From Sinotaia quadrata (Eukaryota > Mollusca > Gastropoda > Architaenioglossa > Viviparidae): DNA of 64,000 nucleotides. The stretch is from positions 46,633,891-46,697,890 of the forward strand of contig CM054179.1 in the NCBI GenBank assembly GCA_028829895.1. Reading direction: 5' to 3'. The notes beneath the pieces were generated by a model, which searched no databases, was not told the DNA's origin, and saw only the letters and a program-made list of their open reading frames with translations. Both the position numbers and the translations under genes were made by a program. This document shows positions 1,529 through 55,600 of the stretch, piece after piece (position 1 is the first letter of the stretch; every line of letters begins with the position of its first letter).

Positions 1529-1960
1529 TTCTGTGAATACAGTGACTTGTTAGGTACTGTAATTTTGGCGTGTAGGTTCTGTGAATACAGTGACTTGTTA
1601 GGTACTGTAATTTTGACGTGTAGGTTCTGTGAATACAGTGACTTGTTAGGTACTGTAATTTTGGCGTGTAGGTTCTGTGAATACAGTGACTTGTTAGGTA
1701 CTGTAATTTTGACGTGTAGGTTCTGTGAATACAGTGACTTGTTAGGTACTGTAATTTTGACGTGTAGGTTCTGTGAATACAGTGACTTGTTAGGTACTGT
1801 AATTTTGACGTGTAGGTTCTGTGAATACAGTGACTTGTTAGGTACTGTAATTTTGACGTGTAGGTTCTGTGAATACAGTGACTTGTTAGGTACTGTAATT
1901 TTGACGTGTAGGTTCTGTGAATACAGTGACTTGTTAGGTACTGTAATTTTGACGTGTAGG
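1529..1960. repeat. 48-bp minisatellite, nine copies
   Basis: Exactly nine head-to-tail units of 48 bp (432 bp), nearly identical. The main variant is an A/G difference in the GACGTG/GGCGTG part. Each unit contains an imperfect dyad, TACAGT...ACTGTA. Because 48 is divisible by three, the array is open in frames on both strands and yields long repetitive translations. These have no start or splice context or family similarity, so I treat them as non-coding. Confidence 0.96.
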
Positions 1961-2089
1961 TTCGTTCGGTTTGGTACGTTATCTTTAGGTTTGTTATGCG
2001 TTCAATGTTTATGTGTATGAAGACTATGTGCATTGTATGTGTATGCATATATATATTACACTATAACATTTGGCCTATAATTAACTAAA

Positions 2090-5520: not shown

Positions 5521-6058
5521 ATATATTTATTATTTTTTTTTAACTTTATAATTTGTTTTTTAGTTAACAACATAGTACAAAAATCTATTATATATAGAAC
5601 AAACTGTATTAAAGTATGTGAAATTTATTAAAAAAAACTTACTAAAGCATAAGATTTGTTAACAAAATTGTGTTGAGGAGCATGACTTTAAATAAATTGC
5701 TATATACGGATAAATTCTACATTAAGTAAATTGCGTTAGATACATGAAGGGCCTATATTAAATAAGCTGCCTTAGATGTGGGCATGCCCTTCATACTATA
5801 ATAAGAATAAAACAACAAAATACAAATCACATCAGTTGTGATGAAGATTTACTATGGGGTAGCTTCAATACAAATTTCGGTTGTCGGTTGTCTTCATACG
5901 AATAAAAGGTTGTCGATGCAGCGCGTCATCAGGAACACCATAACTTGCGACAAGCTGTTGATGTCTTTAGCCAGAGTGAAAGCAATGTGATGTTGATGAT
6001 TCAGATTAATTTTAAAACGATGTCGCTTTCTACTCATGTAGGATAAGCTACTGATAGA

Positions 6059-6450
6059 GCTTAGTGTTGTTTATTGACTCAATGAGGCAGTTTAGTGTTG
6101 TTTACTGACCTACTGAAGCAGTTTAGTGTTGTTTGTTGACCTACTGAAGCAGTTTAGTGTTGTTTGTTGACCTACTGAAGCAGTTTAGTGTTGTTTGTTG
6201 ACCTACTGAAGCAGTTTAGTGTTGTTTATTGACCTACTGAAGCAGTTTAGTGTTGTTTGTTGACCTACTGAAGCAGTTTAGTGTTGTTTGTTGACCTACT
6301 GAAGCAGTTTAGTGTTGTTTATTGACCTACTGAAGCAGTTTAATGTTGTTTATTGACCTACTGAAGCAGTTTAGTGTTGTTTATTGACCTACAGAAGCAG
6401 TGTAGTGTTGTTTATTGACCCACTGAAACAATTTAGTGTTGTCTATTGAA
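6059..6450. repeat. 31-bp minisatellite, block A, about twelve copies
   Basis: The unit is TTTAGTGTTGTTTATTGACC followed by TACTGAAGCAG (31 bp), with well conserved copies and edge copies that decay. It shares the core TTTATTGAYCTAMTRAAGCA with block B (7024-7541), so the two blocks belong to one repeat family. Confidence 0.93.
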
Positions 6451-7023
6451 ATAATGATGCAGTTTTGTTTTGTATTGTATATTGATTTAATGCAGCAACT
6501 GCTAATGATGCACCCTAATGATGCAAATTAGTTTTGTTTAGTGATCTGTAAAGAGAAAGGCAATAGGTATATAGGTTTATTTATTGACATAATGATGCAA
6601 ATTAGTTTTGTTTACTGATCTGATAAGAGAAAGGCACTAACATGTAGATTTATTTATCGATCTAATAATGTAAATTAGTTTTGTTTATTGATCTGTAAAG
6701 AAAAAGGCAAAAGGCATTTTAGGTTTATTTATTGATCTACTGAAGCATTTAGCTTTGTTTACTGACTTAATGAACAAAAATAGTTTTCTTTACTGATTTA
6801 ATATTGCAATATAGTTTTGTTTACTGACATAAGGAAGCGATATAATTTTTCTCACTAAATTAATAAAACAATATAGTTTTGTCTTCTGACCTAAAGAAGC
6901 AATATAATTGTTTTCATGACTAGTTTTATTTACTAATCTAATAAAAGTAATATATTTTAATTCTCTAATCGATGTAAGTAATATAAATGATTATATCTGC
7001 AGATACAGTATAGCAGAGTCAGT
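6451..7023. repeat. Decayed copies linking the two 31-bp blocks
   Basis: TTTAGTTTTGTTTACTGA-type fragments recur with indels between the two homogeneous blocks. I read this as older, diverged units of the same array. Confidence 0.65.
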
Positions 7024-7541
7024 GGGGTTTACTGACATAATGAAGCAATATCGTTATGTTTATTGATCTAATAAAGCAATATCGTTATGTTTATTGATCT
7101 AATAAAGCAATATCGTTATGTTTATTGATCTAATAAAGCAATGTTGTTATGTTTATTGATCTAATAAAGCAATGTTGTTATGTTTATTGATCTAATAAAG
7201 CAATGTTGCTATGTTTACTGACTTAATAAAGCAATATCGTTATGTTTATTGATCTAATAAAGCAATGTTGCTATGTTTACTGACTTAATAAAGCAATATC
7301 GTTATGTTTATTGATCTAATAAAGCAATGTTGCTATGTTTACTGACTTAATAAAGCAATATCGTTATGTTTATTGATCTAATAAAGCAATGTTGCTATGT
7401 TTACTGACTTAATAAAGCAATATCGTTATGTTTATTGATCTAATAAAGCAATGTTGCTATGTTTACTGACTTAATAAAGCAATATCGTTATGTTTATTGA
7501 TCTAATAAAGCAATGTTGCTATGTTTACTGACTTAATAAAA
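7024..7541. repeat. 31-bp minisatellite, block B, with 62-bp higher-order repeat
   Basis: About sixteen 31-bp monomers of the form TTTATTGATCTAATAAAGCA plus an 11-bp variable part. To the left the monomers are uniform. From about 7206 two monomer types alternate (TTGCTATGTTTACTGACTT and CGTTATGTTTATTGATCT). The TTGCTATG motif therefore recurs exactly every 62 bp, at 7206, 7268, 7330, 7392, 7454 and 7516. This is a higher-order repeat made by amplifying a diverged dimer. Confidence 0.93.
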
Positions 7542-8254
7542 AAAAACTCTATCAATGTGTTTAATAATCTCTGAATTACCTAACAAAGCACTCTCTTTAT
7601 GTTTACTGATCTAATAAATCACTATCATTTGATTTAACTATCTAAAAGGCAATATCATTTGTTTAATGACATAATAAAGCAATATATTTTATTTATTGAC
7701 TTAATACAGTAATTTTATTGTATTTATTGACCTAAATTAAGCAATATCCTAAAGGACAAATTACCTAAATAAAGCAACATTCTAAGGGTCTTAATGACCT
7801 AATGTAATCACAAGCACGGGGTTCAATGTCCTAAGGAGCAAAATAATTGTGCTTACTGATCCATGGCGAACAGGTGGGTCAGATCCTGTACGGAATGGAA
7901 ACATCACTAAGTTCAGAACTAATCCTAATCCAAAGGAGACACTCAGCACATGATGCAGGTGACTTACGACACGAGTAACCTGGCCAGAAAAGTCCGGCTA
8001 AGGGTTCCGGCATGTGCTACAATGGTCCATTGCAACCTGCAGAAACTCTGCCACGAAAGCGCTGCAAGCTTCTACAAGTTAAAATGCTCTTCAGACACCA
8101 GAGAATATCACGAAAAATAATTGGAAAAAAACATTAGTAACAAGGTGATGGGAGAAAAGAAAAATGGTTACTGATGACAATAGAAAGCTGAAAATAATAA
8201 TGACAATTTCGCTTCTTTCATGATTTTTAAATCAACACCCGTAAAGAAACAATA
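7542..8254. other. Decaying repeat tail, then AT-rich spacer
   Basis: Up to about 7860 weak copies of the 31-bp family can still be followed. Beyond that the DNA is unique, with no supported gene. It would lie in the first intron of the minus-strand gene whose first coding exon is at 8387-8855. Confidence 0.5.
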
Positions 8255-8385
8255 GCGCCAAAGAGAAGTCTTTAAAAATTTAAGGAAGCGATTATGAAGG
8301 GAGGGTGTCAAAGACTCAAAAGCACCAAAGAGAAGTCTTTAAAAATTTAAGGAAGCGATTATGAAAGGAGGGTGTCAAAGACTTA
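8255..8385. repeat. 67-bp tandem duplication abutting a splice donor
   Basis: Units 8255-8321 and 8322-8385 share GCRCCAAAGAGAAGTCTTTA and the rest of the unit, with few differences. On the minus strand the duplicated segment begins inside the GTAAGT donor of the exon ending at 8387. The right-hand copy is in the functional position; the left-hand copy lacks the donor because its edge reads ACTCAAAA instead of ACTTACCC. Confidence 0.9.
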
Positions 8386-8386
8386 C

Positions 8387-8855
8387 CCAAATAGTCCAAC
8401 ACCTGTCGCTCGTTTTCCTCAGAGAATTCTGCGGCAGCACCAAAGACATCGTCGTATTTCGCAGAGAGCCGATTCCGGAAAACGGTCAAGAAAAATATAT
8501 ACATTTCTCCGTGTCTGACGTCGGCGTAGCACATGGCTTTGTCGCCGAAGTTGCTGATGTTGAATACAGACGCAGTGGCCAGCCCTCCAGCCTTTGAAAG
8601 CACGTCTTGAATCAGTTGCGCCCCTTTGTGGACAGTAAGGATGCGAACCTCGGCCGTGTACGTTCCAGCGTTGGTGCGTACGTTTTTAAAAGCGTGCAAA
8701 ACCTCCCCGACCGCCACAATGTCTGCGAGAGAGGACCGCTCGTAGACTGTCAGAGGTGACCATCCGTTGAGCAGCAGTATGCAAGCCAAGGACAGGTGAC
8801 TTAAGTGCACGAGACAGTAGAAGACGAAGCATTTGGTACCACCTCTGGGAGACAT
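8387..8855 (-). CDS. First coding exon of a secreted protein with agrin NtA-like (TIMP/netrin-fold) domain
   Basis: The reading frame starts at the ATG at 8855, with A at -3 (AAACATG). It runs 156 codons plus one base to a good donor (TTGG|GTAAGT) at 8387; downstream read-through soon hits a stop. Residues about 8-30 form a hydrophobic signal peptide. Residues about 43-130 follow the agrin N-terminal domain pattern: ADIVAVGEV, then TYTAEVRILTVHKG, then ISNFGDKAMC and MYIFFL. These parallel the NtA strands and its FGD...C...IFF signature. In agrin this domain binds laminin. Here only the fold-level likeness can be claimed, and the protein could be another secreted OB-fold protein. The downstream exons were not found with confidence. 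Confidence 0.7.
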
Positions 8856-10400
8856 GTTTGGTTGAAGGTACCCAGGGAGATGAAGAGTAGGGGTGTTATT
8901 TGTCTGACGCTCAATAATTAGTCACCTTTTTTTTCCTCAACCAGTCTTTCGCAGCCTATGCTAGTGGATTAGCTGGAGCGTGGTGCTAAATTCCTTTGTC
9001 TCCACGAATCTTTCTCGCGTGCAGTTCGATTGCCGGAGCTTTTTGAAGAAAATGCACTAAATTTCGTTGTGTGCGGCGATTCTAGATCTGACGTCGGCTA
9101 ACAGTGCCAGAGCAGGAATCCCTCAAGTCTAGAATGTTCCTGACCGCAAAATAATTACACACGTTTTACCCACACTGTTGCTGTGACTACCAATTAGTTA
9201 TGCCTGAAGTATTCTTAAAATTTTCTCTCCGTTCAGGTTGTTAAGTGTGCATTTATAGGAGAGAGATTGTAGGAGTGGGTGGAGGTGGTGGATACCTTTC
9301 ATCAATTAAATGGTGCTGAACTTCGCTCTGGGATTTGTCGTATCGCGGTCGGCATTACTGGCAATTGTTGTAACAACTTTTATTTTTGGATTTAAATAAA
9401 TCTGACAATGTTTACTGGGTTCATTTCGAAATTTTCAAGACAGTGCACCTGGCTATCATTTATCTCTCTATATATATATGTCAAAAATGTTAAATAATAT
9501 TAAATAAATACAAAATATTTCACGAGTAAACTATTTACAATATGCATTCATAATAGTTGTAGACAAGAGCATGTCGAGCTCGATACGCACGACAATATTC
9601 ATCAGTCGCCTGGCGAAAAAAAAAAAATTCCAATCTACACATTTTTTCTGTTCATAATATTCCGTAAAACACGTGCTTTGACCGATATATAGATCGGGGG
9701 GAAGGGGAATAAAACTATAAAAGCTTCTTCATTATAGATTTCAGCAACTCTTATGTCCATTTAAATTACTTCTTTGTCTCGAAGCCAATAATCTGTTTCA
9801 TATTTCCGTGCTTTTGATGGGGAGTTAGTTGTCTTCCTAACACTCGAAAGTAAACACATTCGATTGCATAGCAATAAAAACCTAGATTTAGCATCTGTAA
9901 CTAGATCAATTTAAAAAAAAATATTAAATCACCACTTCTACTTTAAAATGCAATGATGTCATAAAAGCCAGAGTCCCGCTCTCCAACCAGTCCAGTCTTG
10001 GAATCTCCCAGTGACTCGTCCCCACTGCTCTTCTCTTCATGTCGGTTTCAATCGTACATCAACTTGGGGCACGCGGAGCAATGAGAAATCACTTTTGGCC
10101 AAAAAATTTTCAGAGACGTTTTTGGCGTGGAAATTTTATTCCTTTTATTTTTTTTTTGGTTGGTGCTGTTTTTAAATTTTCGGAGTTTTTTTTTTTTTCC
10201 AGTCTCGTTACTAGGTAGAAGGCTTACTGTCGTCTGCTTCACTAATTTATGCGTTTTTCCCCTTTCTCGCGCTACCCTTACTAGCACGCGATCGCTTGAC
10301 TGACAGTTTGCCCCACGCTGCTCGTCTTTTCCTCACTGGCTTCGTCTGTCGTTTCTTGCCTTGCCTAAGCTGTTTGGATTGCCCGGAGAGGAGAAGAGGG
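8856..10400. other. 5' flank of the NtA-like gene and intergenic DNA
   Basis: The first few hundred bases right of 8855 should hold the promoter and 5' UTR of the minus-strand gene, but no clear TATA box or initiator stands out. The rest is AT-rich with short A and T runs. The small frames at 10048-10502 are built on poly-T and poly-G tracts and are not convincing. Confidence 0.4.
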
Positions 10401-21351: not shown

Positions 21352-21471
21352 GGAGGAAGAGTACAAATGCCGATCTGATCTGATCGTACATGCTGCAGGT
21401 CGAACAAGTACTTTGTGCTGACGTCCAGTGAAACAGAGTGAGATGTCGGGCTTCATTCTCTTGGAGCAGGG

Positions 21472-22112
21472 AGCCACTGTTTTGAGTGGGAGTTGGGGGG
21501 GGGATGGTGGCACAGACAACCATTGTTTTGAGTGGGAGTTGGAGGGAACAGGCAGCCATTGTTTTGAATGAGAGCTGGAGAGATCAGACAGCCATTGTTT
21601 TGAGTGGGAGTTGGAAGGAACAGGCAGTTATTGTTTTGATTGGGAGTTGGAGGAAACATGGAGCCATTGTTTTGAGTGGGAGTTGGGGGGGGGAACAGAC
21701 AGCCATTGTTTTGAGTGGGAGTTGAGGGGAATAGGCAACCATTGTTTTGAGTTGGAGGTGGAGGGAACAGAGAGCCATTGTTTTGAGTGGGAGATGGAGG
21801 GGAACAGGCATCCATTGTTTTGAGTGGGAGTTGGAGGAAACAGGGAGCCATTGTTTTGAGTGGGAGTTGGGTGGGTGGAATAGGCAACCATTATTTTGAG
21901 TGTGAGTTGGAGGGAACATGCAGCCATTGTTTTGAGTGGGAGATGGAGGGACACAGGCAGCTATTGTTTTGAGTGGGAGTTGGAGGGAACAGGCAGCCAT
22001 TGTTTTGAGTGAGAGTTGAAGGGAACAGAGAGCCATTGTTTTGAGCGGGAGTTGGAGGGAACAGAGAGCCATTGTTTTGAGCGGGAGTTGGAGGGAACAG
22101 CCAGCCAGTGGC
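21472..22112. repeat. 36-bp minisatellite with a SOX-like motif in each unit, 17 copies
   Basis: The unit AGCCATTGTTTTGAGTGGGA followed by GTTGGAGGGAACAGGC is 36 bp with occasional G-run insertions up to nine G. I counted 17 copies. The octamer CCATTGTT, a canonical SOX-type binding sequence, is exact in thirteen. Several long open frames on both strands follow from the 36-bp period. They carry QNNG- or LKTM-type repeats with no coding evidence. Confidence 0.94.
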
Positions 22113-24771: not shown

Positions 24772-24849
24772 GTAAGTAGAAACCAGTGGATTTACTGTTA
24801 AATAAACCGCTGGGCCCAAAGATTTCATTGACTGTTTGGGGAATTTAAT

Positions 24850-25760
24850 TATTTCTGAGCAATTCGTGCTTTAACTTGTTTTTTAATTCACTACTTATGT
24901 TTGACTGTTCTTTAATTTTTAATAATTTGTGCTTGAACTTTTTCTTTAACTCTTATTAATTTGTGCTTTAAATTTTTCTTTAAATCTTAGTAATTTGTGC
25001 TTTAACTTTTTCTTTTATTCCAAGTAATATGTTTTCGGACTGTTCTTTAATTTTTAGTAATTAGTGCTTTAATTTTTCTTTAATTCTTATTAAATTATGC
25101 TTTAAGTTTTTTCTTCAATATTTGGTAACTTTTGTTTTGGCTGTTCTTTCATTCTTAGTAAGTTAGTAGGTTGTGCTTTAACTTTTTCTTTAATTCCTAG
25201 TAATTTGTGCTTTAACTATTTTATTAATACTTAGTAATTTTTGTTGTAGCTGTTCTTTAATTCTTACCAATTCATGTTTGTGGCTGTTCTTTAATTCTCA
25301 GTAATTTGTGCTTTAACTTTTTCTTTAATTCTTAATAACTTGTATTTTAAGTTTTTTAAAGTTTCTTAGTAATTTTGTTGTGACTGTTCTTTAATTCTAA
25401 GTAAGTTTGCTTTAACTTTTTCTTTATTTCTTAATAATTTGTGCTTTAAGTTTTTCTTTAATTCTTAGTAATTTGTGTTGTGACTGTTCTTTAATTCTAA
25501 ATAAGTTTTGCTTTAACTTTTTCTTTATTTCTTAATAATTTGTGCTTTACGTTTTTCTTTAATTCTTAGTAATTTGTGTTGTGACTGTTATTTAATTCTT
25601 AGTAATTTCTTAACTGTTCTTTCATTCCAGCAATTCGTGATGTAATGTGTCTTTAATTCCTAATAATTCATTTTTTAAATTTTATTTCACTATTCATAGT
25701 TTTAAGAATACTGGTCTCTTAATTCCAATGAATTCATGCTTTAACTCTCTATATAATTCA
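24850..25760. repeat. Degenerate T-rich array (CTTTAATTCTTAGTAATTTG core)
   Basis: CTTTAATTCTTAGTAATTTG followed by TGCTTTAACTTTTT recurs every 35-45 bp, about twenty times, with strong decay. Its T bias agrees with plus-strand transcription from about 24.5 kb. Confidence 0.8.
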
Positions 25761-37615: not shown

Positions 37616-40600
37616 CTGCAAAAAATTCAACTATTAGCATGAGACCTGCATGCAACACAGTATATCATGAGATAACTCATTTCAAAAATAAAGAAAAGTA
37701 CATCAGCATGATGCACATATGCAAAAATGTCCAGACTTGTAAAATAAACATTTAACAACAATCAAGAAACTACAGGTCAAAACTGGTATTTGCTTTTAAA
37801 GAAAGAAGTGAATGTTTCTAGAAATAATCATGAAATTAGAGAGAAAAATGTTGTAAATCACCTTGCTACTGTTGAGTTCCAATAGATAAGGTCGCAACGC
37901 CTCACCCACTGCCATGTAAATGTTGACCAGACAAAACACACTGGCTTTACGAACCCGGCTGTCACTATCATCATAGCCCTAAAAATTAACAAACAACTTA
38001 AATCTTAAGTACTAGCAAAGACTTTGCCAACAGATTTTAATCAATACACTGTCATAGCTCTAAAAACAAAAACTAAAACCAAATGAAATAAAAACAATTA
38101 ACAAAAAATCTATTTAAATAATTGCAGTTCCACAAATATCACATAGGGTATAAATATTAAGAGCAATTAAAACTGTTGTACTCCACAGCAAATGTGAAAC
38201 TGCCACAGCAAACAAAATTTGGAGGAAAGCTATCTTGCTCACAACTAGTAAGCCGCATCTCACCATTATCAGTCCTGGCACAGTGTCTGGCAAGGTTCGC
38301 TGAAGAACTTCTGGTGGTACCAGTTTCACTACCTGTACCATGAAAACAAAATTACAACACTTTAGAAGAAGAAGAAAAAGGCCAAAATAGAAAACATCTT
38401 TAAATAAGACAAGTAAAAGAGTGAAGATGCACAGTCAAGATCAGAGTGCTTCCAATCCAAAAACTTTCAGAAACTTTAAATATTTTCACTTTCAAATAAT
38501 CATTGGATAACAAATTGCTTCCAATCCAATGTTTACATGCACTTTACACATTTTCACTTTCAAAATAATCATTAGAAAACACTTTTCACTTTCACTTTCA
38601 AATAATCATTAAAAAATTGCTTCCAATCCAATATTTTCTTATACTTTAAATACTTTCACTGTCAAATATTAGACATCAAAAAGCACAAACAATATATATT
38701 TTTTAATAAATAAAGAAATATTTCAAACTGATTAATTATATAATGTAAACAAGCAATACAAGTTAATCAATCAATCAAATAAATAAAATTAAAATGAATT
38801 CAATACATAAATAAATACTATCTTCTTTACACATTTAGAAACAATTAATTCATTCATTATACAAAACTACTACAATCCATTTACATTTAAAAGTGAAAAA
38901 TGATAAGACTATCCATCCCAAGACTGAGCAATTAAATCAACCATGTACATACATACAAATATAATATATAAAATGGGAAGTTACTGATCTTATGTTCATG
39001 GGGTAATGAAAATATTTTTACAATAACACTGCTTGGTCTTCCTTCATAAATTATATTATCACAGAGCCCAAAGACAGAAAGTGGTCTCATTCCATTCATC
39101 ATCAAAAGGCTAACAGAAATCTCTCAAGCATATGAATGCTCATAAAACACAGCTCAAATACTTTTTTATGTATTTAGAGTCATAAAGTATCTATAATTAT
39201 ATTTTTATCAAATAAACCAATTATATAATGAGTAGGTACAATAGCACCCCTTTCCTATACAGTCATCAATACATTCAACTCACCTAATCCATGTCCACAC
39301 CTATACAGTTACCCATGCATTCAACTCACTTTATTGGTTCACACCTATACACTTACCCATGCATTCAACTCACCTAATCCATGTCCACACCTATACAGTT
39401 ACCCATGCATTCAACTCACTTTATTGGTTCACACCTATACACTTACCCATGCATTCAACTCACCTAATCCATGTCCACACCTATACAGTTACCCATGCAT
39501 TCAACTCACTTTATTGCTTCACACCTATACAGTTACCCATGCATTCAACTCACTTTATTGGTTCACACCTGTACAGTCATCAATGCATTCAACTCACCTA
39601 ATCCAATGGTCTACATCTGTAAGTCACCCACACATTCAACTCAATTAGTCTATTGGTTCACAACTATACAGTCACTCACACATTCAACTCAATTAGTCTA
39701 TTGATTCACAGCTATACAGTCACCCACACATTCAACTCGATTAGTCTATTAGTTCACACCTATACAGTTATCCACATACTCAACTCAATTAGTCTATTGG
39801 TTCACACCTATGCAGTTACCCTGATATTTAACTCAATTAGTCTATTGGTTCACACCTACACAGTTACCCAACACATTAAACTCAATTAGTCTATTGGTTC
39901 ACACCTATACAGTCAATCATACATTCAACTCGATTAGTCTACTGGTTCACAACTATACAGTTATCCACCTATTCAACTCAATTAGTCTATTGGTGCACAC
40001 CTATACAGACACCAACATATTCAACTCAATTAGTCTATTGCTCCACAAGCATCTGTATGCCCTCAAGAAAATAATGAACAGATTTTGAACATATTTTTTC
40101 CATTTGAAGACACTGTTTACAGTACTGTTTCCAAATTTGTAATTAAATCTAGAATAATAAATATCAAAATATGTTTATTTGGTATTGTACACAACATTTT
40201 AATCCTTTTATGCTGGTGAATAAAAAAAAGAATTGTGCTTCATTCCTCAGTCATCATTTTGGATCATATATATTCCTTTCATCATCTTCACATGCCAGCT
40301 CAATTTGTCTGTGAATGCATTATCAGCTGCCAATCTGCAAACTTTAATCTTAGTTTATTTTCACAGGCTAAATTACTGTATTAACAACAATATCAGGCTA
40401 AGTTTAATTTCCATGAAAATTCCTATTAGCTCCTAAGTTTTAATGTTAGAACTAAATAAGGGATTACAAAAATAGTGACTAGCAGACAATTTTGTTTGCA
40501 TAATTAAAAAATATCCATAAATGGGTCAGTCAATCATTCAGAAGAGCACTATTTTTCTTCACTTCAACTTCTGAAATCTGAAAGTGTCATTGCTAAGGCA

Positions 40601-43600: not shown

Positions 43601-46600
43601 AAAGATATGATTAAGTGACTATTTCAAATAATGGATTAATAAATGATCCTAATGGCAGAAGTGTAAAAGAATGAAAAATATGATGAAATGGTAGGTTGAA
43701 TGATGAATAAAATTTAATTTCTAATCGAAAGATATGCTGACTGATTTAAAGTTGCTTAGATGGTGTATATATTAACAAGTTTAAAGATTAATTTAACCCA
43801 CCCTGTGCAGTTATATGACATATTGTTAGCAGCAGCAGAAGTAGTTTCTAAGACAAAAAAATTGTGCAGAAGTACAGTCTAACACAGTGGTTCCCAACTT
43901 TTTTGTGACCAGGAGCACATTCAAGTTTTCAAAAGAGTGTGGTAGGCACCAAAATTTTTCAAGGCTTACTTTGTATTTGGACTTAATAATATGCAAAACA
44001 TTATATGTAAAAATACATAATGTCATGAAACAGGTCACTAAATACCATCCTCACCATAACTACCAACTGTGCTGTATCCAATATATCTGTCGACTCATCA
44101 AACTGCAGTGAAAACCATTCACATGTATGCAAATCATCTTTGAGTTTGTATGTCACTTGAAATTGTATGTATCTTTCTCTTGTTGTCTGATAACTGCAAA
44201 TCCTGTATTGCCGACAAAATCTCACGCTTGATGCAGCAGATTAATACTCAAATAATATAATAATGGAAACACAGGTCACTGACATCTTACTTTGTGCTTG
44301 TGCATTTGCAAACTAAAATGTGGTGGTACACTACTGAGCTATATACAGCAATACAGATTGGGAGAAATACCCTAAACAAGCGGGTCATAGAATAATATGA
44401 AGGCTATCATGACTGTCACAGTCTGATAAAATTGTCCGACTTCGTGACCCACTTGCCTTGTTTACTTCAAATTCGAATATTTGAAACCCTTGGCCCTTTG
44501 TTCAAAGCTTCCTTTTTCTAGGTGCTTCTAGAACAGGTCAAGATGTTATGTAACTTTAGGACCATTGTCCAGTTCTCGAACCAACCACATGCTTTGCGAA
44601 CAGTCACGTGATACGCAATATACCTTTCTATATATGTACCCACACGCTTCCGCTCCCTCACTTCGAGCACATTTTAGCTAATTCCATCAGCTTACTCGGG
44701 TCGTGAGAGGCAGCCGGCGCCATAGAGAATCAAGGTACCCTTCGACTTCTCTCAAAGGTATCATTTTATTTAATAGTATTTGCCTATGTATTGTTTAAGT
44801 ATGTATTTGTGCTATGTATTATATGATTTCCATATACACTTGAGCATGGTTCAAAGAAATAGCTGAAAACCTATATGTTACGGAATATAAATTTATTGTA
44901 ACCATTTTTCCATTTCTGTACTTTAATTTATATTGTTTTAATTCACTAAAGAGCCAGAATGCTGCGCTCGATATGAATTCTTCATGTAATTCAATTATTG
45001 CGTGTAATTTTAATTGTAAATTGTGAAGCGCTCTGTCGGTTTGAATTACCTCTTGTATGAACATTAATTTAACGTTGTATCTATTTTATTGCTTCATACG
45101 TCATGACTGTTAAATGGAACACATGTGAGACGATTATATTTTTTCTAAAATCTAATTGTAAGCGACGCGAAGTCGAAACTCTTTGTTCAGCGCATTTAAT
45201 TGAGCCATGCCCAGGTAGGACCTGTTAGGTTGAGAATTATATCCAAACACGTTGCATCCACAGGTCGGCTCATGGTTCATGTTTCACCATGCCTCACCTG
45301 CATTAGCTTATTGGTGTAAGCGTGTCGAAATCCACTCTGAGGGCCATGCTGCAAAAATTCCAGTTCCTAGCCACTAACAAAGGGACATCATTCCTTATGC
45401 ACCACGTGTGTCGTTAAAGGGGGACTGAGGGAACGAATCAGCATGACTGAGTGTTGAGACCAAGGATACAAGAATAGAGCTAAGTGCAAGATCAAGTGTA
45501 CAGATCTCAAAGGAACACTTTTCTGGCAATTTAGATTGACAAAAATCAGGCATAGGCGCGTAAAGACAGAGTGAAGACTATTCGCGTTGCATTCGATTTA
45601 TTGTTAATTTGTTAAACTTCATTAAATCTTATTTTCTCTGTTAATACCTCTTAGTAGTTGATTTCTATGCACAATAGACCAATTAGATTAATTCTTAGAT
45701 TTGAATGGGGGCGGATGAGCAGAAAGATTGATGACGAGTGCATATTAATTTAGAGGGACTTAACTGTTTTCAAATCTAGCTAAAAGTTCGTAGTTTATTA
45801 GTCTGTAAATTTGTCGTCTGAACTACAAGACGCACTTTTAATTAGTCAGATAATAAATTGAGCAACCAGTCTGCGTAGAATATGAGAGGAAGAATTAATT
45901 ATATTTAAAGTCTTTTAATTATTCTAAGCAGGGTCTTTAAATAAATACTGGAAACGTAACAAGTGTGGGTCGTCGCGGGATTGATATGTATTAAATTGTA
46001 AATTGTAACATTTTTATACATAGGGCGCATCATAACCTAGAAACGAACGAACGAACAGAATTGCCAATTGTTCTTTTGATTTTTGTATCACTGATTTTCT
46101 TTGCTTTTGTTGTGACATGTGCATGTATTCTTTTGCAGAGTAGCGTGCATGTTTAGTTAATGTTGATATATTTAAGCGTAGTTAAATATGTCATGTTAGC
46201 TATTGAATGATTTATTTAGTATTGTGTTACTGAGTACTTCATTGTGAGGAGTCGAAGGTTATACCGCCAGCTAGGAGAGTTATCGGTAGTAACAGACTTC
46301 GGACTATTATATTTAGGGTGCTAGATATAATGTGTAATGTTGTATGGTAGGAGCCGTGACATTACGAAAGTCTTGGAACAGCGGACACTGTGACAAGCAG
46401 GTGAAACGTGTAAGAGTTAACGCGCAATTTATTTCGGAAGGTGTTCTGAGTAAATTAAATAATTTTGTAAGGTTGTAGCCTAAAAGTTATTTTCGGGATA
46501 AGCGGAGTTATCGCCGACGGTTAAAACACACAATTCACGAGATACATTCTTATTGTAGCCAGCGCGCTAAGACAGTAAAATGGATCGCAAACAGGTTCTC

Positions 46601-49600
46601 GAAGACCTGAAAGAAACCGGTATCATGATAGGATATCAGGGTGACGAACTGACTAGCTACATTAAAACTGAGCTAGAGAAAGCGGAAAAGGAGAGACAAG
46701 AGATAGAAAGGGAAGAACGGTTAGCCGCCCGCGAAGCAAAAAAATTAGAGGCTGAAAGACTAGCCGACATCGAAACAAAACGAATCGCAGCGGATACAGA
46801 AGCCAAACGCATCGCGGCAGACGCGGAAATAAAACGGTTAGAATGGGAAGTAAAGAAACTAGAAGTTACCAATCCAAACCGTGATCGCAGAAGCAGTGGT
46901 GATTCGCGTTCTAGCGATGGAAATAATCACAGTAGAATTGAAAATATCATTCCAAAGATAAATATGGTCCCATTTGATGAGAACAAAGATCAAATAGACG
47001 CGTATTTAAAAACGTTTGAAAAGTTAGCCAGAGCAACAAACATTCCAGCGGAACATTGGGCGATAAATTTATCGGGGTTATTGCAGGGCAGTGCGAAAAA
47101 CGAGTTCAATAAGCTTAGCGATTCTGAGTCAGATAATTACGACACAGTCAAGGCCGCATTATTGAAACGTTACAAACTCACAGCAGATACATACCGACGT
47201 AAGTTTAAACAGGCCACTAAAGCCAGTTCAGAGACGCACGCACAGTACATACGACGTGTAGCTGACTTGTTCCAAAGATGGATAGATCTAGCCGAAACTC
47301 CACAGACGTACGCAGGTCTTAGGGATGAAATGGTAAAAGACCATATTCTCGGGTCATACAAATCAGATCTACTGATTCACTTAGCAATAAGGGAAAAATC
47401 TACGCTAGAGGAGATAGGCAACGCCGCCGATCGCTTTGATGACGCACATTCTCAATTCTCGAACGCACACGCGAACAACAAGTCTCGACCGAACGAACCG
47501 CAGACTCGAAAGGATAAGAAAAATGACGGGAAGGCACATAGTGAGCGTGATGATAAAACATCTAAACCCGACACTAAAAACAAGTCCGACAAACAGAAAG
47601 ATAAAAAGAATCTTGCATGTTACACTTGTGGTGATAGTGGCCATTTTTCACGAACATGTCCTGAAAAGAAAACAGCTAAAGTTTACGCAGTAGAAAGTCA
47701 TACACCTAAAACAGAAAAGTCGAATCGAACACCAGTACAGGCAAACGGTCACGATACAATCGCTTTGCTTGATACAGGGTGTGAGCTAGACGCTATTGTA
47801 AATGCATCATTAGTTAACCGTACCGACTACACAGGGGAGACAATCTCTGTCACCTTTGCAAACGGCGAACAAGACATTTTACCAGTAGCTGAAGTCTCGA
47901 TTGTTTCAGACTTTGTAGAAGGAACAGTCAAAGCGGCAGTTATGGAAAACTCACCGCATGACGTGATCCTTGGTTGCAAGTATGTTTTGCCGTGCAAAAA
48001 ACAAACTTCAACTGAACCACCACTGGTTAACGCTGTAACCAGAGCAGCGAGTAGTAAAGACAAATCTGTAACTGCACCGATGTCTGCCGCACCAGCCGTA
48101 GATAAAGCAACAGTTAGCGAGATTAAAATATTACAAGCTGAGGACGAAACACTATACAAGTTACGCAAGCAAGCTGTACTTGTTAGTGACGTCAACACTG
48201 ACGATTCGAATAAGAAAGCGTGCATTATTCTGAAAAAGGGTTTATTGTACCGCTATTCGAAAGTGGGAGACGAATTTCGGAAACAATTAGTCGTTCCACA
48301 AACCAAACGAAATGACGTATTACGATTAGGTCATGAGAGTCCTTTTGGTGCACACATGGGTGTACAAAAAACAACTAGTCGTATTACAAGTGAGTTTTAT
48401 TGGCCGGACATCACTGCCGATATCCGTAGATTCGTGTTAAGTTGCGACACATGCCAGAGAACACAGTCTAAAAATTCAATCAGACCCGCACCGTTAGGAG
48501 AGCCTGAACTGATCAGTGAACCCTACAAGCGCGTAGCATTGGATTTGATTGGGCCTATAATACCCACATCAACGAGAGGTAATCGATACGTGCTGACCAC
48601 TATTGATTACGCAACAAGATTCGCCGACGCAGTACCATTGAAAAATATTGATACTGAAACTGTCGCCGAAGCCCTTTTCGGTCTTTGGAGTCGTGTTGGA
48701 ATTCCTACTGAAATTTTGACGGATCAGGGGAGTCAATTCATAGGCAACGTAATGAAGGAAGTAAATCGTTTACTTTCCATCAAACATCTTACTTGCACAC
48801 CATACCACCCCCAGGCAAATGGTCTGATTGAAAAATACAATGGGACATTAAAAACAGCACTTAAAAAGCTCGCCACAGATAAACCGAAAGACTGGGACAG
48901 ATACATCCCTGCCCTACTATTTGCATATAGGGAGGTGCCACAATCTTCCACCGGGTTTTCACCATTTGAGCTACTTTACGGACGTACTGTACGCGGACCG
49001 ATGATGATTTTGAAGGCACTTTGGACTGATGAAAAGACAGATGACGAAGTTAAGACAACTTATACATACGTCACTGACTTAAGAAACCGTCTTGAAACTA
49101 TAGGCAAGATAGCACGGGAAAACTTGACGATAGCTCAGTCTAGACAGGCAGAATATTACAATAAGCACACCAAACCTAGAGAATTTGAAGTTAATGACAA
49201 AGTGTTACTGTTGCTTCCTGAAGCACATAACAAACTTCAGATGAAATGGAAGGGGCCCTTTGTAGTTACCGCCAAGCTAGGGGGACTGAACTATAAGGTG
49301 CAGACAGGAAAGAGAGAGAAAATCTTTCATGTTAACCTACTCAAAAAGTACATAAGCCGTGAGGATCAAACCACTCAAGCTGATTTTGTCGTAGCGACGA
49401 TAGTTACAGAAGACGAGGGGGATACTGATTGCGTCACTGGTACTTTACCAAACTGTCCTCTACAGACGGACGAAACTGTCAAAGACGTTAGGGTAAATGA
49501 AGCCTTGACAGAAAGACAGAAAAAAGAAGTGAATGAATTGCTTAATGAGTTCTCATCTACTCTGACAGACAAACCAGGGTTGACAGACTTAATAGAATTT

Positions 49601-52600
49601 TCACTGAAGCTGACTGACAACAAACCGATACGTTTGAAGCCGTATCCGTTGCCACACGCTAAGATAGATGACGTTAGACGTGAGATTAAGACTATGCTAG
49701 ATCTAGGGGTCATAGAGAAGACTGACAGTGCCTACGGATCACCCATCGTGTTGATTAAAAAACGTGATAACTCGTTCCGTTTTTGCGTAGACTACCGCAA
49801 ACTCAATCAAGTGACAGAGTTTTGTGCCGAACCTCTTCCTGATCCGGATCTCATCTTCACTAAGCTAGCTAACGCTCATTACTATACCAAAATAGATTTG
49901 TCACGCGGTTTTTGGCAAATCAAGGTCAAGGACACTGATCGACACATACTAGCTTTCACTACACCAGTAGGAAACTACACATGGAAAGTTATGCCTTTCG
50001 GAGTTTCAAACGCTCCAAGCATTTTTTCTAAAATGATGCGGTCATTGTTAGAACCACTGTACGGACGCGGAGTTGAGAACTTCATGGATGATTTAATTCT
50101 AGGCACCCAGACATGGGAGGAGCACTTAACACTCTTACGAGATGTGCTAGCCAGATTAAAACAAGCCAACCTCACTGCCCGCCCTACGAAGTGTGAAATA
50201 GCACAATTCTCCTTAGACTTCTTGGGACACAAGTTGAGTCATGGAACTATGTCGCCAAGTGAAGCTAAGATAGCACAACTTAAGGACACTTCACAACCGC
50301 TAACAAAAACACAAGTTAGAAGTTTTCTTGGTCTTGCTAACTACTACAGAAAATTCGTACCAGATTTTAGTGCCATTGCATGTCCTCTGACTGACTTGAC
50401 ACGTAAGAATATGCCTACAAAAGTAGTGTGGACTGATGCATGCCAAAACGCTTTTGACACACTGAAATCTAGACTGACTTCAGATTTAGTTGTTAAACTG
50501 CCAGATTTGACAAAACCATTCTTGTTAAGGACTGATGCTAGCAACACAGGATTAGGAGCAGTGTTATTACAAGAACACAATGACACCAAACACCCAGTTG
50601 CATATGCAAGCCGTAAACTCACAACTACTGAACAGAAATATTCCACCAGTGAAAAGGAATGTCTTGCAATAGTTTGGGCCATAAAAAAGTTCGAAAACTA
50701 TTTGTACGGAAAAACCTTTGTCATTGAGTGCGATCACCAGCCGTTGGCCTTTCTCGGACAGGCGCAATTTACGAACAGCCGTTTAATGCGTTGGTCTTTG
50801 TTTCTGACACAGTATGACGCAAATATTCATTACATCAAAGGGTCTTTGAATGTTGGCGCAGATTACATGAGTCGTGCTTGATGCCATCAAGTGCCGGTAC
50901 TGATAGAATGTTGTTTAATCAATTAACTGAACCCTACGGATTCCTTCCTGTAAATATGAAATATAGTTGCACACTTTATTTCTAGGAATGTTGAAATTTT
51001 TTTTGTGTAAATTTTTCTTCATTGTGGACTTCTACATTTTATCATACATAATTTGTAGGAGGCATTTTATCTTTGGTAAGATAAACGCCTCAAAAGCAAG
51101 GGGGTGTCACAGTCTGATAAAATTGTCCGACTTCGTGACCCACTTGCCTTGTTTACTTCAAATTCGAATATTTGAAACCCTTGGCCCTTTGTTCAAAGCT
51201 TCCTTTTTCTAGGTGCTTCTAGAACAGGTCAAGATGTTATGTAACTTTAGGACCATTGTCCAGTTCTCGAACCAACCACATGCTTTGCGAACAGTCACGT
51301 GATACGCAATATACCTTTCTATATATGTACCCACACGCTTCCGCTCCCTCACTTCGAGCACATTTTAGCTAATTCCATCAGCTTACTCGGGTCGTGAGAG
51401 GCAGCCGGCGCCATAGAGAATCAAGGTACCCTTCGACTTCTCTCAAAGGTATCATTTTATTTAATAGTATTTGCCTATGTATTGTTTAAGTATGTATTTG
51501 TGCTATGTATTATATGATTTCCATATACACTTGAGCATGGTTCAAAGAAATAGCTGAAAACCTATATGTTACGGAATATAAATTTATTGTAACCATTTTT
51601 CCATTTCTGTACTTTAATTTATATTGTTTTAATTCACTAAAGAGCCAGAATGCTGCGCTCGATATGAATTCTTCATGTAATTCAATTATTGCGTGTAATT
51701 TTAATTGTAAATTGTGAAGCGCTCTGTCGGTTTGAATTACCTCTTGTATGAACATTAATTTAACGTTGTATCTATTTTATTGCTTCATACGTCATGACTG
51801 TTAAATGGAACACATGTGAGACGATTATATTTTTTCTAAAATCTAATTGTAAGCGACGCGAAGTCGAAACTCTTTGTTCAGCGCATTTAATTGAGCCATG
51901 CCCAGGTAGGACCTGTTAGGTTGAGAATTATATCCAAACACGTTGCATCCACAGGTCGGCTCATGGTTCATGTTTCACCATGCCTCACCTGCATTAGCTT
52001 ATTGGTGTAAGCGTGTCGAAATCCACTCTGAGGGCCATGCTGCAAAAATTCCAGTTCCTAGCCACTAACAAAGGGACATCATTCCTTATGCACCACGTGT
52101 GTCGTTAAAGGGGGACTGAGGGAACGAATCAGCATGACTGAGTGTTGAGACCAAGGATACAAGAATAGAGCTAAGTGCAAGATCAAGTGTACAGATCTCA
52201 AAGGAACACTTTTCTGGCAATTTAGATTGACAAAAATCAGGCATAGGCGCGTAAAGACAGAGTGAAGACTATTCGCGTTGCATTCGATTTATTGTTAATT
52301 TGTTAAACTTCATTAAATCTTATTTTCTCTGTTAATACCTCTTAGTAGTTGATTTCTATGCACAATAGACCAATTAGATTAATTCTTAGATTTGAATGGG
52401 GGCGGATGAGCAGAAAGATTGATGACGAGTGCATATTAATTTAGAGGGACTTAACTGTTTTCAAATCTAGCTAAAAGTTCGTAGTTTATTAGTCTGTAAA
52501 TTTGTCGTCTGAACTACAAGACGCACTTTTAATTAGTCAGATAATAAATTGAGCAACCAGTCTGCGTAGAATATGAGAGGAAGAATTAATTATATTTAAA

Positions 52601-55600
52601 GTCTTTTAATTATTCTAAGCAGGGTCTTTAAATAAATACTGGAAACGTAACAATGACATGCCCAAGAGATGGTGTGGGTGGTTGGGGGGATGGGAAACAA
52701 CCATCAGCATTGGCAGGATTGATTTGGAGAGGGTCTGTTACTATGCCTGGACATGGTTTGAAAGAAATAATGAAATCCATCACAGCAGAAAAAGATTGAA
52801 GTTCATCTGCTTAGTTCTGATACTTTATAGTGTCCCACTTCCCCATTCTTACACAGCCCCCTTTCCCCATATGAAATCAGCATAATATGGGAGCACTCTC
52901 CCCAACTAAATCAATAAATAGTAACAGTATACAAATAATGTGAGACTGGATAAGACGGCACCATGTTGGGGACCACTGGTCAAACAGAATTACAAATTTT
53001 GAAGTGCCCAGAAATGAAGGAGTTAAAGATGATGCAAAGGCCAACAAGCTGTCCACAAACAAGCTGTCCACAAAACCAACACAGACTGAAGCAGAAATCA
53101 CTGAATTACAAGGTCTGGGTCAGATGACAGGGCCAATGTGGACACAAATGAGAGAGACATGACTAATGGAAAAACAGCTATATAAGCAATGAATAAATAC
53201 CATAATGAAAAAAAGAACAGGCATGAAAAGTAAGATACACAAGTGCTTTTAAAAATTACATGAAATACTATGTTCAGAATGGGCGTATTTTCATTAAAAA
53301 AAATAAAGAAAAATCAATGATAAGATGGACAACAAAAGCAATTAAGCAGGAGAGAATTAGAGCAGTGGGTGTTAAAATCATGAGGGAGCAAATAAACAGA
53401 TGTCTGTGCAGAAGGATGGACGGATGAAAGTAAATTTTACATCAGTTGCTGAATCTCGTACATCTTTAGATGGGTCCCGGTGAGCTTCACAAATCTTGAG
53501 AATTGTCAACTCAGCATAATCTCGGAAACGAGCAGGCTGGCGTTTCAGAATTGACCGGAACACAATAAGGGCATCCATCCGCATGGCTTTCTGCAAATTA
53601 GAAAAAGAACTAGTACAAATAATGAAAGTATCTTACTAAAACATTTTGGAATTACTAAAAAATATTTTAAGTATCGATAGCATTATTTTATATTAAATAA
53701 TAATATTTTTTAAATAAAACTATGTTTATATTTCTTTCTAAATTTTTAAAGGTGTAATTTTGTAATAATACTACCATGCATAATTGAATATAAATCCACA
53801 AAAATTTGCATTGAAAAAACTGTGGTCAGTGACCAAAATCATCGAAGACTGTCACCAACAATGGCGGATTGAACCGAGCAGCTTCGCGCTCCACACGCGA
53901 CATTGAACCAGTTTCCACTTTGCAATCTCGCCGCACATCATTCTGTTTGAAGATGTTAGTTGCTAAGTTAAAATCAATTATTTTCATTTTTAAATGTGTA
54001 TTTTTTAATTTAAAGGACTATATTAGCCGATAAATAAGAACTGTAGGTCTGTAGGCCTAAAGTGGCATTCATCTTTGAAGGTTTTGAGGGTGAACATGGA
54101 AAATGGCTTTATGAATTTATGCCTGCCTTATTCGTAGTTTAAGTGTTATATCATTCAATAGGGGAAAGATTTATTTTCAATATTATGCATTTGGTTTATA
54201 TAAATAGCGTATTATTTGTTTTTAATTCTTTTTATTTTGTGAATTTTTCATTCTTTGATAAAAAGTTAAACATTTTTGAAGTTAGTAACACCAGTCAGTT
54301 CCCACAGAAAATTCTAATTTGCATATAATAAGCACATAAATATCATACTTTTTGTTTGTCTGATTACTCCCCTTTGATAGTCTGGGGAGTTATGTACTTT
54401 AAAATGTATAGTGAAAAAACTATCTGACATAAATTTTTTTTTTTTTTTTAAAATAAACATGAGATTCTGAACTTTAATAAATTAGAAAATACCCACTTTT
54501 GAATTTTTTTCACTTTAGATGGATTTTCCCAGACAGCGTCACATACACATTTCAGAACCTAGGCAGAAATATGTTCTAAATAAGCCCAGTGTGTAGCGAG
54601 GAGTAAAATCACCAAAAAACCTCACGGCAGAAGAGAGTTAAGAAACAGTGACAATTGTATGTGTGGAAACAGAAAAAAATCTTGTCAATTTTATTAACAA
54701 GATTTATATTTAAACTTTATACCTAACAGAAGCCAATCTCAATGATCATCCTTGCATTTAATTCATGTCATGCTGGGAACAAATCTTGCAGATTGTATAA
54801 ATGAGTGAGATATTTAAGCTTTAAATCTACTAGAAGCCAATGTCAACCTTCATTCTTACAATCAACTCACATCGCTATCCCCAAAAGTCTCGATCAGTAT
54901 GAGCAGAATGGATTTAAAGTGTTCATCCCACTGCTCTGTGGTGATGGCATTTTCCCTCACCATCTTTAATAAAGTGTCAAGCATCCGCCGTCGCTCTCGC
55001 ACCCTTAAAAAAACAGCACAACAAAAACTTAATGTCAGTGTCTAGCAATAAAATACCAATTTTAAACAACAGTGAGAAAGGAACTATCCATCAATAAAGC
55101 AACACAGTGTTCTATTGTTCATGTCTGACAATTAAAATAGTCACAATTATAATAGTCACAAACGACAGTGAAAAAGGAACTATCCATCAATAAAGTAACA
55201 CAGTGTTGTGCTCATGTCTGACAAAAAAAACAGTCACAAACAAGAGTGAGAAAGGAACTATCCATACATAAGTACAAATCTTCAAAAATTATGCTACAAC
55301 TCACCTCTCATTGTGATTAGAGAGTTCGCGCAAAATCTCCTGAATGGTTATTCTTCTATCATATGTTCCTGTACAAGAACAAAGATAAATTCAATTTTCA
55401 GGAAACTGGAATTTTCTAAGTAATAAAGGTTATTTTCCTTGAGTTTGTTTCAGATGATAAACACAAGGAGTATTAATAGATCTGCATAATACAAAGCCAG
55501 ACAGCCCAAAAAGGGTGATCATATACTCTCAAGGGGAGGAGATAAAATGACAAAGAACTTACCATTGCATACCTCTGAATGAGGGTGATAACCTCTCATA

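What the first reader, a model, noticed from the sequence alone, without database searches (positions are those of the whole stretch)
44414..52652. Intact Ty3/gypsy-type retrotransposon with integrase before reverse transcriptase (Gmr1-like)
Seen: one 1,433-codon frame ordered Gag, CCHC knuckle, DTG protease, integrase with D-D-35-E and a GPF module, then reverse transcriptase (FMDD) and RNase H. Known: nearly all Ty3/gypsy elements have integrase last, and the swapped order with gypsy-like domains defines the Gmr1 group, first reported from deuterostomes. Inference: this is a young, possibly active member in what looks like a protostome genome.
Basis: partly seen in the sequence, partly recalled or inferred. 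Interest (0 to 1): 0.85.

Follow-up and report, generated by a model that had tools for sequence, protein, structure and literature searches.

The report
Young integrase-first Ty3 retrotransposon swarm
A complete jumping gene of a known but unusual type (its integrase lies before its reverse transcriptase) sits here as one of hundreds of very recent copies that have shuffled sequence with each other, most of all in the front part of their capsid protein.

Summary
Window 44414-52652 is an intact LTR retrotransposon: identical 1,548-bp LTRs, 5-bp duplication ATGAC, one 1,433-codon frame ordered Gag-CCHC-PR-INT-RT-RNase H. RT and INT are Ty3-type. The order is no private rearrangement or misassembly: 115 of 120 listed RT relatives (molluscs, echinoderms and a hemichordate among the named) have INT first, as does a second family in this genome. 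Its Gag is homologous to SCAN-annotated Gags. So it is a Gmr1-like Ty3/gypsy element, although no fish Gmr1 could be put in a tree. Gmr1-like elements in protostomes were published in 2013 and 2021, so the headline surprise is old. Less ordinary is the population: 757 exact junction copies; no substitution between the two LTRs in 18 of 18 sampled copies. Yet copies differ from each other, linkage between sites drops sharply within 150 bp and is close to background beyond 400 bp, and the Gag N-terminus is far more variable than the rest. Best reading: a currently or very recently mobile, strongly recombining family, probably in a mollusc.

The parts
44409..44413 (.). 5-bp target-site duplication, left copy (ATGAC)
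44414..45961 (+). 5' LTR, 1,548 bp, TG..CA
45966..45983 (+). candidate tRNA primer binding site (TGG...), primer tRNA not identified
   Evidence: sequence; assignment is inference
46580..50881 (+). single gag-pol ORF, 1,433 codons
46580..46954 (+). Gag N-terminal coiled-coil-like modules (residues 1-125), hypervariable between copies
   Evidence: coiled coil inferred from the residue pattern
46955..47689 (+). Gag capsid (SCAN-type, by homology) and CCHC knuckle (residue 347 on)
47771..47779 (+). protease active-site DTG (residues 398-400)
48260..49369 (+). integrase: H2C2, D655-D715-E751, GPF 892
49754..50236 (+). reverse transcriptase (RVT_1, FMDD at 1168)
50429..50815 (+). RNase H
51092..51104 (+). 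polypurine tract before the 3' LTR
   Evidence: sequence; used in the junction count
51105..52652 (+). 3' LTR, identical to the 5' LTR
52653..52657 (.). 5-bp target-site duplication, right copy (ATGAC)

Best explanation
It is a Gmr1-like Ty3/gypsy LTR retrotransposon, a member of a family that is or very recently was mobile in this genome. Inferred working: LTR-driven RNA is translated into one polyprotein; Gag packages RNAs from different copies together; reverse transcriptase switches templates between them, so each new DNA is a mosaic with two identical LTRs; integrase inserts it with a 5-bp staggered cut. Slipped switching in the repeat modules of the Gag N-terminus makes mostly in-frame length variants. 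Shown: anatomy, domain order, copy number, perfect duplications, LTR identity, low pN/pS, mosaicism. Inferred: transcription, co-packaging, template switching, present activity.
For: 757 exact copies of the 33-bp polypurine-tract/3' LTR junction, control 0; 1,560 exact LTR ends, control 0. Of the first 100 listed LTR ends 94 form 47 pairs, 5 stand alone, 1 is cut by the list end. 150 of 150 scored RT matches (of 4,387 first-look candidates) are 100% identical in protein; 137 of 150 lie in an open frame of at least 1,400 aa (hand count). 18 of 18 copies with both LTRs complete have perfect 5-bp duplications; 16 of 18 LTR pairs have no difference and 2 differ only by 1 or 4 gap bases. pN/pS 0.06-0.14 in gagCA, PR, IN and RH among 19 copies, 18 for RH. 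117 informative sites in 18 copies: mean r2 0.45 under 50 bp, 0.12 at 50-150 bp, 0.11 at 150-400 bp, 0.07-0.08 beyond 400 bp, permuted 0.057. LTRs differ by 1.4% on average between copies, L010 left out, with no substitution within copies, which puts the shuffling before or during insertion. High-frequency recombination during transposition bursts is reported for a plant family (PMC5668417: listed abstract and one reference passage seen).
Against: No RNA, cDNA or insertion-polymorphism data. The sampled copies come from one chromosome and were listed because their RT protein equals the window's, which favours young copies and forces pN of RT to zero. Recombination is strong but not complete: 9 of 28 pairs of regions keep correlated distances at Mantel p below 0.05, and r2 stays slightly above the permuted value. 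Frames are not all intact: L025 is broken in gagN, and the ends of the L023 and L028 frames differ in length. The primer tRNA was not identified.
Confidence: 0.82

Rival explanations
1. The domain order is a private rearrangement of a conventional gypsy element, or an assembly error.
For: Gypsy elements in general have INT after RT (passage).
Against: 20 of 20 copies share the order; 115 of 120 listed RT relatives are INT-first; a second family in the genome, 42-43% identical in INT and 43% in RT, is INT-first; three conventional Cordylochernes elements are 35% identical in RT and 31% in INT, and such elements fall apart from the rest.
Confidence: 0.02
2. The copies were shuffled after insertion by host gene conversion between dispersed copies, not during reverse transcription.
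For: Ectopic conversion also makes mosaics and short-range linkage (general knowledge); linkage drops sharply within 150 bp.
Against: Conversion of single LTRs should leave the two LTRs of a copy different; 16 of 18 are identical and the other 2 differ only by gaps.
Confidence: 0.12
3. A single master copy made all copies in one burst.
For: High identity in RT and IN.
Against: 20 of 20 LTRs are distinct; nearest neighbours are 0.26-1.2% apart for 18 of 20 copies, 4.3% and 16% for L014 and L010; linkage is near background beyond 400 bp; Gag N-termini come in several module arrangements.
Confidence: 0.05
4. The family came in recently by horizontal transfer, for example from a parasite or another mollusc.
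For: No old copies in the sample, though the sample favours young ones. Fluke-like mtDNA lies in the same assembly, so contact with a parasite is likely.
Against: The joined IN+RT tree puts it next to elements of gastropods (Littorina, Babylonia; SH-aLRT 98), as vertical descent in a mollusc would; IN alone does not show this. A diverged copy exists (L010, LTR about 82% identical), so the family is not all new here.
Confidence: 0.1

Closest known systems
Gmr1 clade of Ty3/gypsy (Goodwin and Poulter 2002, seen only as cited in PMC8220671, PMC3587641 and PMC2582038)
   Same: PR-INT-RT-RNase H order with Ty3-type enzymes; SCAN-type Gag (PMC3424704, PMC4131045, passages)
   Different: No fish Gmr1 sequence was at hand, so clustering is untested; here in a probable mollusc, with a hypervariable Gag N-terminus
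INT-first elements of Littorina, Haliotis, Pecten, Dreissena, sea urchins, sea cucumbers, crinoids and Glandiceps
   Same: Order; RT 43-52% identical; SCAN annotated in 76 of the 120 listed relatives (hand count)
   Different: Only database predictions; their population structure was not examined
Ty3 (PDB 4ol8, 7q5b)
   Same: RT E 6e-51, INT E 1e-34
   Different: In the Ty3 chain the INT match (1085-1450) lies after the RT match (597-839)
Ty1/copia
   Same: Domain order
   Different: RT and INT match Ty3 and retroviral families; no copia-type RT family among the 15 hits
Recombining plant LTR family during bursts (PMC5668417)
   Same: Recombination between family members during bursts
   Different: Plant element; I saw the listed abstract and one reference passage only

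Membership tests
LTR retrotransposon | Identical LTRs with TG..CA ends and a short target duplication | tested here: met
   duplications in 18 of 18 further copies
LTR retrotransposon | tRNA primer binding site | tested here: inconclusive
   TGG at 45966; the search for the tRNA gene did not complete
Ty3/gypsy (Metaviridae) | RT and INT nearest to Ty3, not copia | tested here: met
Gmr1 clade | INT upstream of RT | tested here: met
Gmr1 clade | RT and INT cluster with other INT-first gypsy elements | tested here: met
   chosen rows only, conventional outgroup from one species
Gmr1 clade | RT and INT cluster with cod or other vertebrate Gmr1 | not testable with these tools
Gmr1 clade | SCAN-type capsid in Gag | tested here: met
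   hhalign probability 100, E 1e-57 against Gags of 31 chosen SCAN-annotated relatives (rows under 200 aa dropped by the script), and phmmer matches to 29 of them, best 1.5e-49. Against: the direct SCAN Pfam hit is 13.1 bits, cut-off 27, and the nearest relatives P0001, P0002, P0004, P0005 and P0007 carry no SCAN annotation
Retrovirus or errantivirus | env gene | tested here: not met
   223 nt between pol and the 3' LTR
Recently mobile family | LTR pairs without substitutions | tested here: met
   0 substitutions in 18 of 18 pairs
Currently mobile family | Transcripts, cDNA or polymorphic insertions | not testable with these tools
   no RNA or second individual held

The most novel reading that the evidence does not exclude
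The family behaves as a strongly recombining population inside the genome and keeps a diversified, module-shuffled Gag N-terminus. The coiled-coil segment would be an exchangeable cassette kept diverse because it is the target of host restriction or of copy-number self-control.
Probability: 0.2. Interest if true: 0.7.

Novelty: new member of a known kind. Interest (0 to 1): 0.45.

Why it matters
The order itself is known, but a family of hundreds of near-contemporary copies close to linkage equilibrium is a natural experiment on recombination between LTR retrotransposons in an animal. It also offers a sharp question: why is diversity at least six-fold higher in the Gag N-terminus than in any other part measured. 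If that segment is a restriction target, the family could point to an animal counterpart of known Gag-directed controls.

Tried and rejected
Copia membership: rejected by RT and INT matches. Private rearrangement: rejected. Host = fluke: I first read contig C26 as showing a digenean host (mtDNA gene order, whose meaning is recalled; COX2 neighbours). I dropped this because p450 gives 93 matches on C1-C8, many in clusters (92 of 483 candidates scored), whereas flukes have about one such gene (recalled), and because a chromosome-6 stretch carries nad2-cox1-cox2 that reads like a mollusc (likeness recalled). Against this, the only near-identical cox1 match in the assembly is the fluke-like one on C26; the others are 66-84%. 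The trematode eggshell family PF08034 gave nothing anywhere and decides nothing. A strong LTR-to-IN distance correlation (Pearson 0.78, L010 left out) came mostly from one diverged copy, L014; with both left out it is rho 0.22, p 0.10, and 19 of 28 region pairs have p of 0.05 or more while 9 stay correlated. In gagN synonymous differences are raised too (pS 0.29, pN/pS 0.19), which speaks against simple positive selection on the protein; misaligned modules add to it. A count with 3 mismatches and a tRNA search did not complete. Paper searches: hypervariable coiled-coil Gag in retrotransposons, 5 papers, none on the point by title; Gmr1 with molluscs, 20 of 27 listed, and Gmr1 with flukes, 15 of 31 listed, no listed title reporting a Gmr1 element in either; the mollusc survey PMC6238403 names Gmr1 once, in its introduction, and the bivalve survey PMC10294476 has no word beginning Gmr.
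Full report
What is there. The window holds a complete LTR retrotransposon at 44414-52652. The LTRs are 1,548 bp, begin TG and end CA, are 100% identical, and are flanked by ATGAC on both sides. One frame of 1,433 codons carries, in order, a coiled-coil-like Gag N-terminus, capsid, CCHC knuckle, DTG protease, H2C2 zinc finger, D-D-35-E integrase core, GPF module, RT with FMDD, and RNase H. After pol only 223 nt remain before the 3' LTR, so there is no room for env there.

Which kind. RT matches Ty3 RT best among solved structures (E 6e-51) and integrase matches Ty3 integrase best (E 1e-34). A search with RT residues 1000-1260 gave 699 hits, of which 120 were listed. Of the 120, 115 have integrase before RT; 2 show no integrase match; 3 are pseudoscorpion proteins in other arrangements. 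Named relatives include Littorina, Haliotis, Pecten, Dreissena, Nucella and Babylonia, sea urchins, sea cucumbers, crinoids, brittle stars and the hemichordate Glandiceps. In my hand count of the listing 76 of 120 carry the SCAN domain; the window's nearest relatives (P0001, P0002, P0004, P0005, P0007) do not. The window Gag itself scores only 13.1 bits against SCAN (cut-off 27), but it is clearly homologous to the Gags that carry it: I chose 31 SCAN-annotated relatives, and hhalign gives probability 100, E 1e-57 over 316 columns, with phmmer matches to 29 of them. SCAN derives from a Gmr1-like Gag according to PMC3424704, and among the frog LTR elements studied it was found in Gmr elements only according to PMC4131045 (passages). 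Quick trees of RT and of IN (60 chosen rows each) and of both joined (35 chosen rows) keep the INT-first elements apart from conventional pseudoscorpion elements (SH-aLRT 100 in each). The RT tree and the joined tree put the window with unnamed relatives beside Littorina and Babylonia (95 and 98); the IN tree alone does not. The outgroup is one species, so this does not show by itself that the INT-first order arose once. No vertebrate Gmr1 was available.

A second family. The 15-kb contig C18 carries two tandem copies, 6,762 bp apart, of another INT-first element, 42-43% identical in INT and 43% in RT, again with repeat modules in Gag. So INT-first order is not limited to one family here.

Copy number and age. 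The exact 33-bp junction of polypurine tract and 3' LTR occurs 757 times (control 0), the exact 24-bp LTR end 1,560 times (control 0). At about 8.2 kb each, 757 copies are about 6.2 Mb or 0.6% of the 984-Mb assembly; copies with a changed junction are not counted. Of the first 100 listed LTR ends, 47 pairs lie 6.2-6.8 kb apart, 5 stand alone and 1 is cut by the list; one of the 5 (33800646) has a junction match and so belongs to an element. Few solo LTRs are therefore seen. I fetched 20 stretches on C1 spread over the 150 listed RT matches. One was too short by mistake and one cut an LTR at its edge. In the other 18 of 18 the duplication is perfect and the two LTRs show no substitution; 2 of the 18 differ by gap bases only. 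That is about 27,800 compared positions without a substitution, so a mean divergence under roughly 1.1e-4 (rule of three). At 1e-9 to 1e-8 changes per site and year (recalled range, not measured here) the mean age is below roughly 5,000 to 55,000 years. The sample is biased to young copies, since the 150 rows have RT protein identical to the window.

Purifying selection. pN/pS among copies is 0.09 in gagCA, 0.14 in PR and spacer and 0.06 in IN (19 copies, L010 left out) and 0.06 in RH (18 copies); RT is zero by the choice of sample. Copies so young can hardly have gained these differences in place; I infer that they arose along replicating lineages under selection for function.

A mosaic population. 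Between copies LTRs differ by 1.4% on average, IN by 0.6%, RT by 0.5% (L010 left out), and 20 of 20 LTRs are distinct. With the two most diverged copies (L010, L014) left out, 18 copies give 117 informative sites. Mean r2 falls from 0.45 under 50 bp to 0.12 at 50-150 bp, 0.11 at 150-400 bp and 0.07-0.08 beyond, against 0.057 when permuted; the four-gamete test fails in 15% of the nearest pairs and in 43-47% in each class further apart. Of 28 pairs of regions 19 show no distance correlation at p below 0.05, and 9 do: recombination is strong, not complete. Since both LTRs of a copy agree, the shuffling most likely happened before or during reverse transcription. Such recombination is reported from a plant burst (PMC5668417, listed abstract; PMC6527191, passages).

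The Gag N-terminus. Residues 1-125 differ by 9.9% in aligned bases with 19% gaps, against 0.5-1.6% in the other regions; lengths run from 375 to 508 nt. By script 17 of 20 are in frame over this stretch; the anchors may have clipped L010 and L024, whose long frames are open, while L025 is broken. Modules such as TEAKRIAAD and EAKKLEA are gained, lost and rearranged. Synonymous sites are raised too, so mutation and recombination in repeats, together with old lineages kept in circulation, may explain much of it; diversifying selection is possible but not shown.

Host. The RT and joined trees, p450 clusters and a mollusc-like nad2-cox1-cox2 stretch on C6 (likeness recalled) point to a mollusc; the species is not identified. 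Contig C26 starts with fluke-like mtDNA that runs into other sequence with a stretch of N, most likely from a parasite in the sequenced animal.

Verdict. The element is a Gmr1-like Ty3/gypsy element in a probable mollusc, a new member of a known kind: PMC3587641 (2013) calls its crustacean elements the first Gmr1-like ones described in protostomes, and PMC8220671 (2021) adds an annelid. The interest lies in the young, strongly recombining swarm and its variable Gag end.

Noticed in passing
L029, L039, L040 (G000:C26:1-30000): Contig C26 starts with a fluke-like mitochondrial genome (cox2-nad6-nad5-long gap-cox3-cob; best named COX2 Ogmocotyle ailuri, 75%) that is followed by a second start of the same genome and then other sequence with 100 N: probable parasite contamination of the assembly.
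   Followed up: partly
L050 (G000:C6, around 73821032): A chromosome-6 stretch with open nad2, cox1 and cox2 frames in the invertebrate mitochondrial code: a recent nuclear copy or a misjoined host mitochondrial piece.
   Followed up: partly
L034 and L043 (G000:C18): Second INT-first family, two tandem copies 6,762 bp apart on an unplaced 15-kb contig, with its own repeat modules in Gag.
   Followed up: partly
L010: Diverged copy: LTR about 82% identical to the window, internal pieces 94-98%, which suggests LTR exchange between subfamilies.
   Followed up: partly
window 8316-8921 (-): Open frame with an agrin NtA-type domain (38.9 bits, cut-off 25.1), probably an exon of a host gene.
   Followed up: no
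window 1529-1963, 6048-7748, 21463-22107, 24843-25683, 39254-40048: Many minisatellite-like tandem arrays across the window.
   Followed up: no
G000:C1 about 25.1-25.3 Mb and 46.5-47.2 Mb; C5 about 53.2-53.3 Mb: Clusters of cytochrome P450 exons.
   Followed up: no
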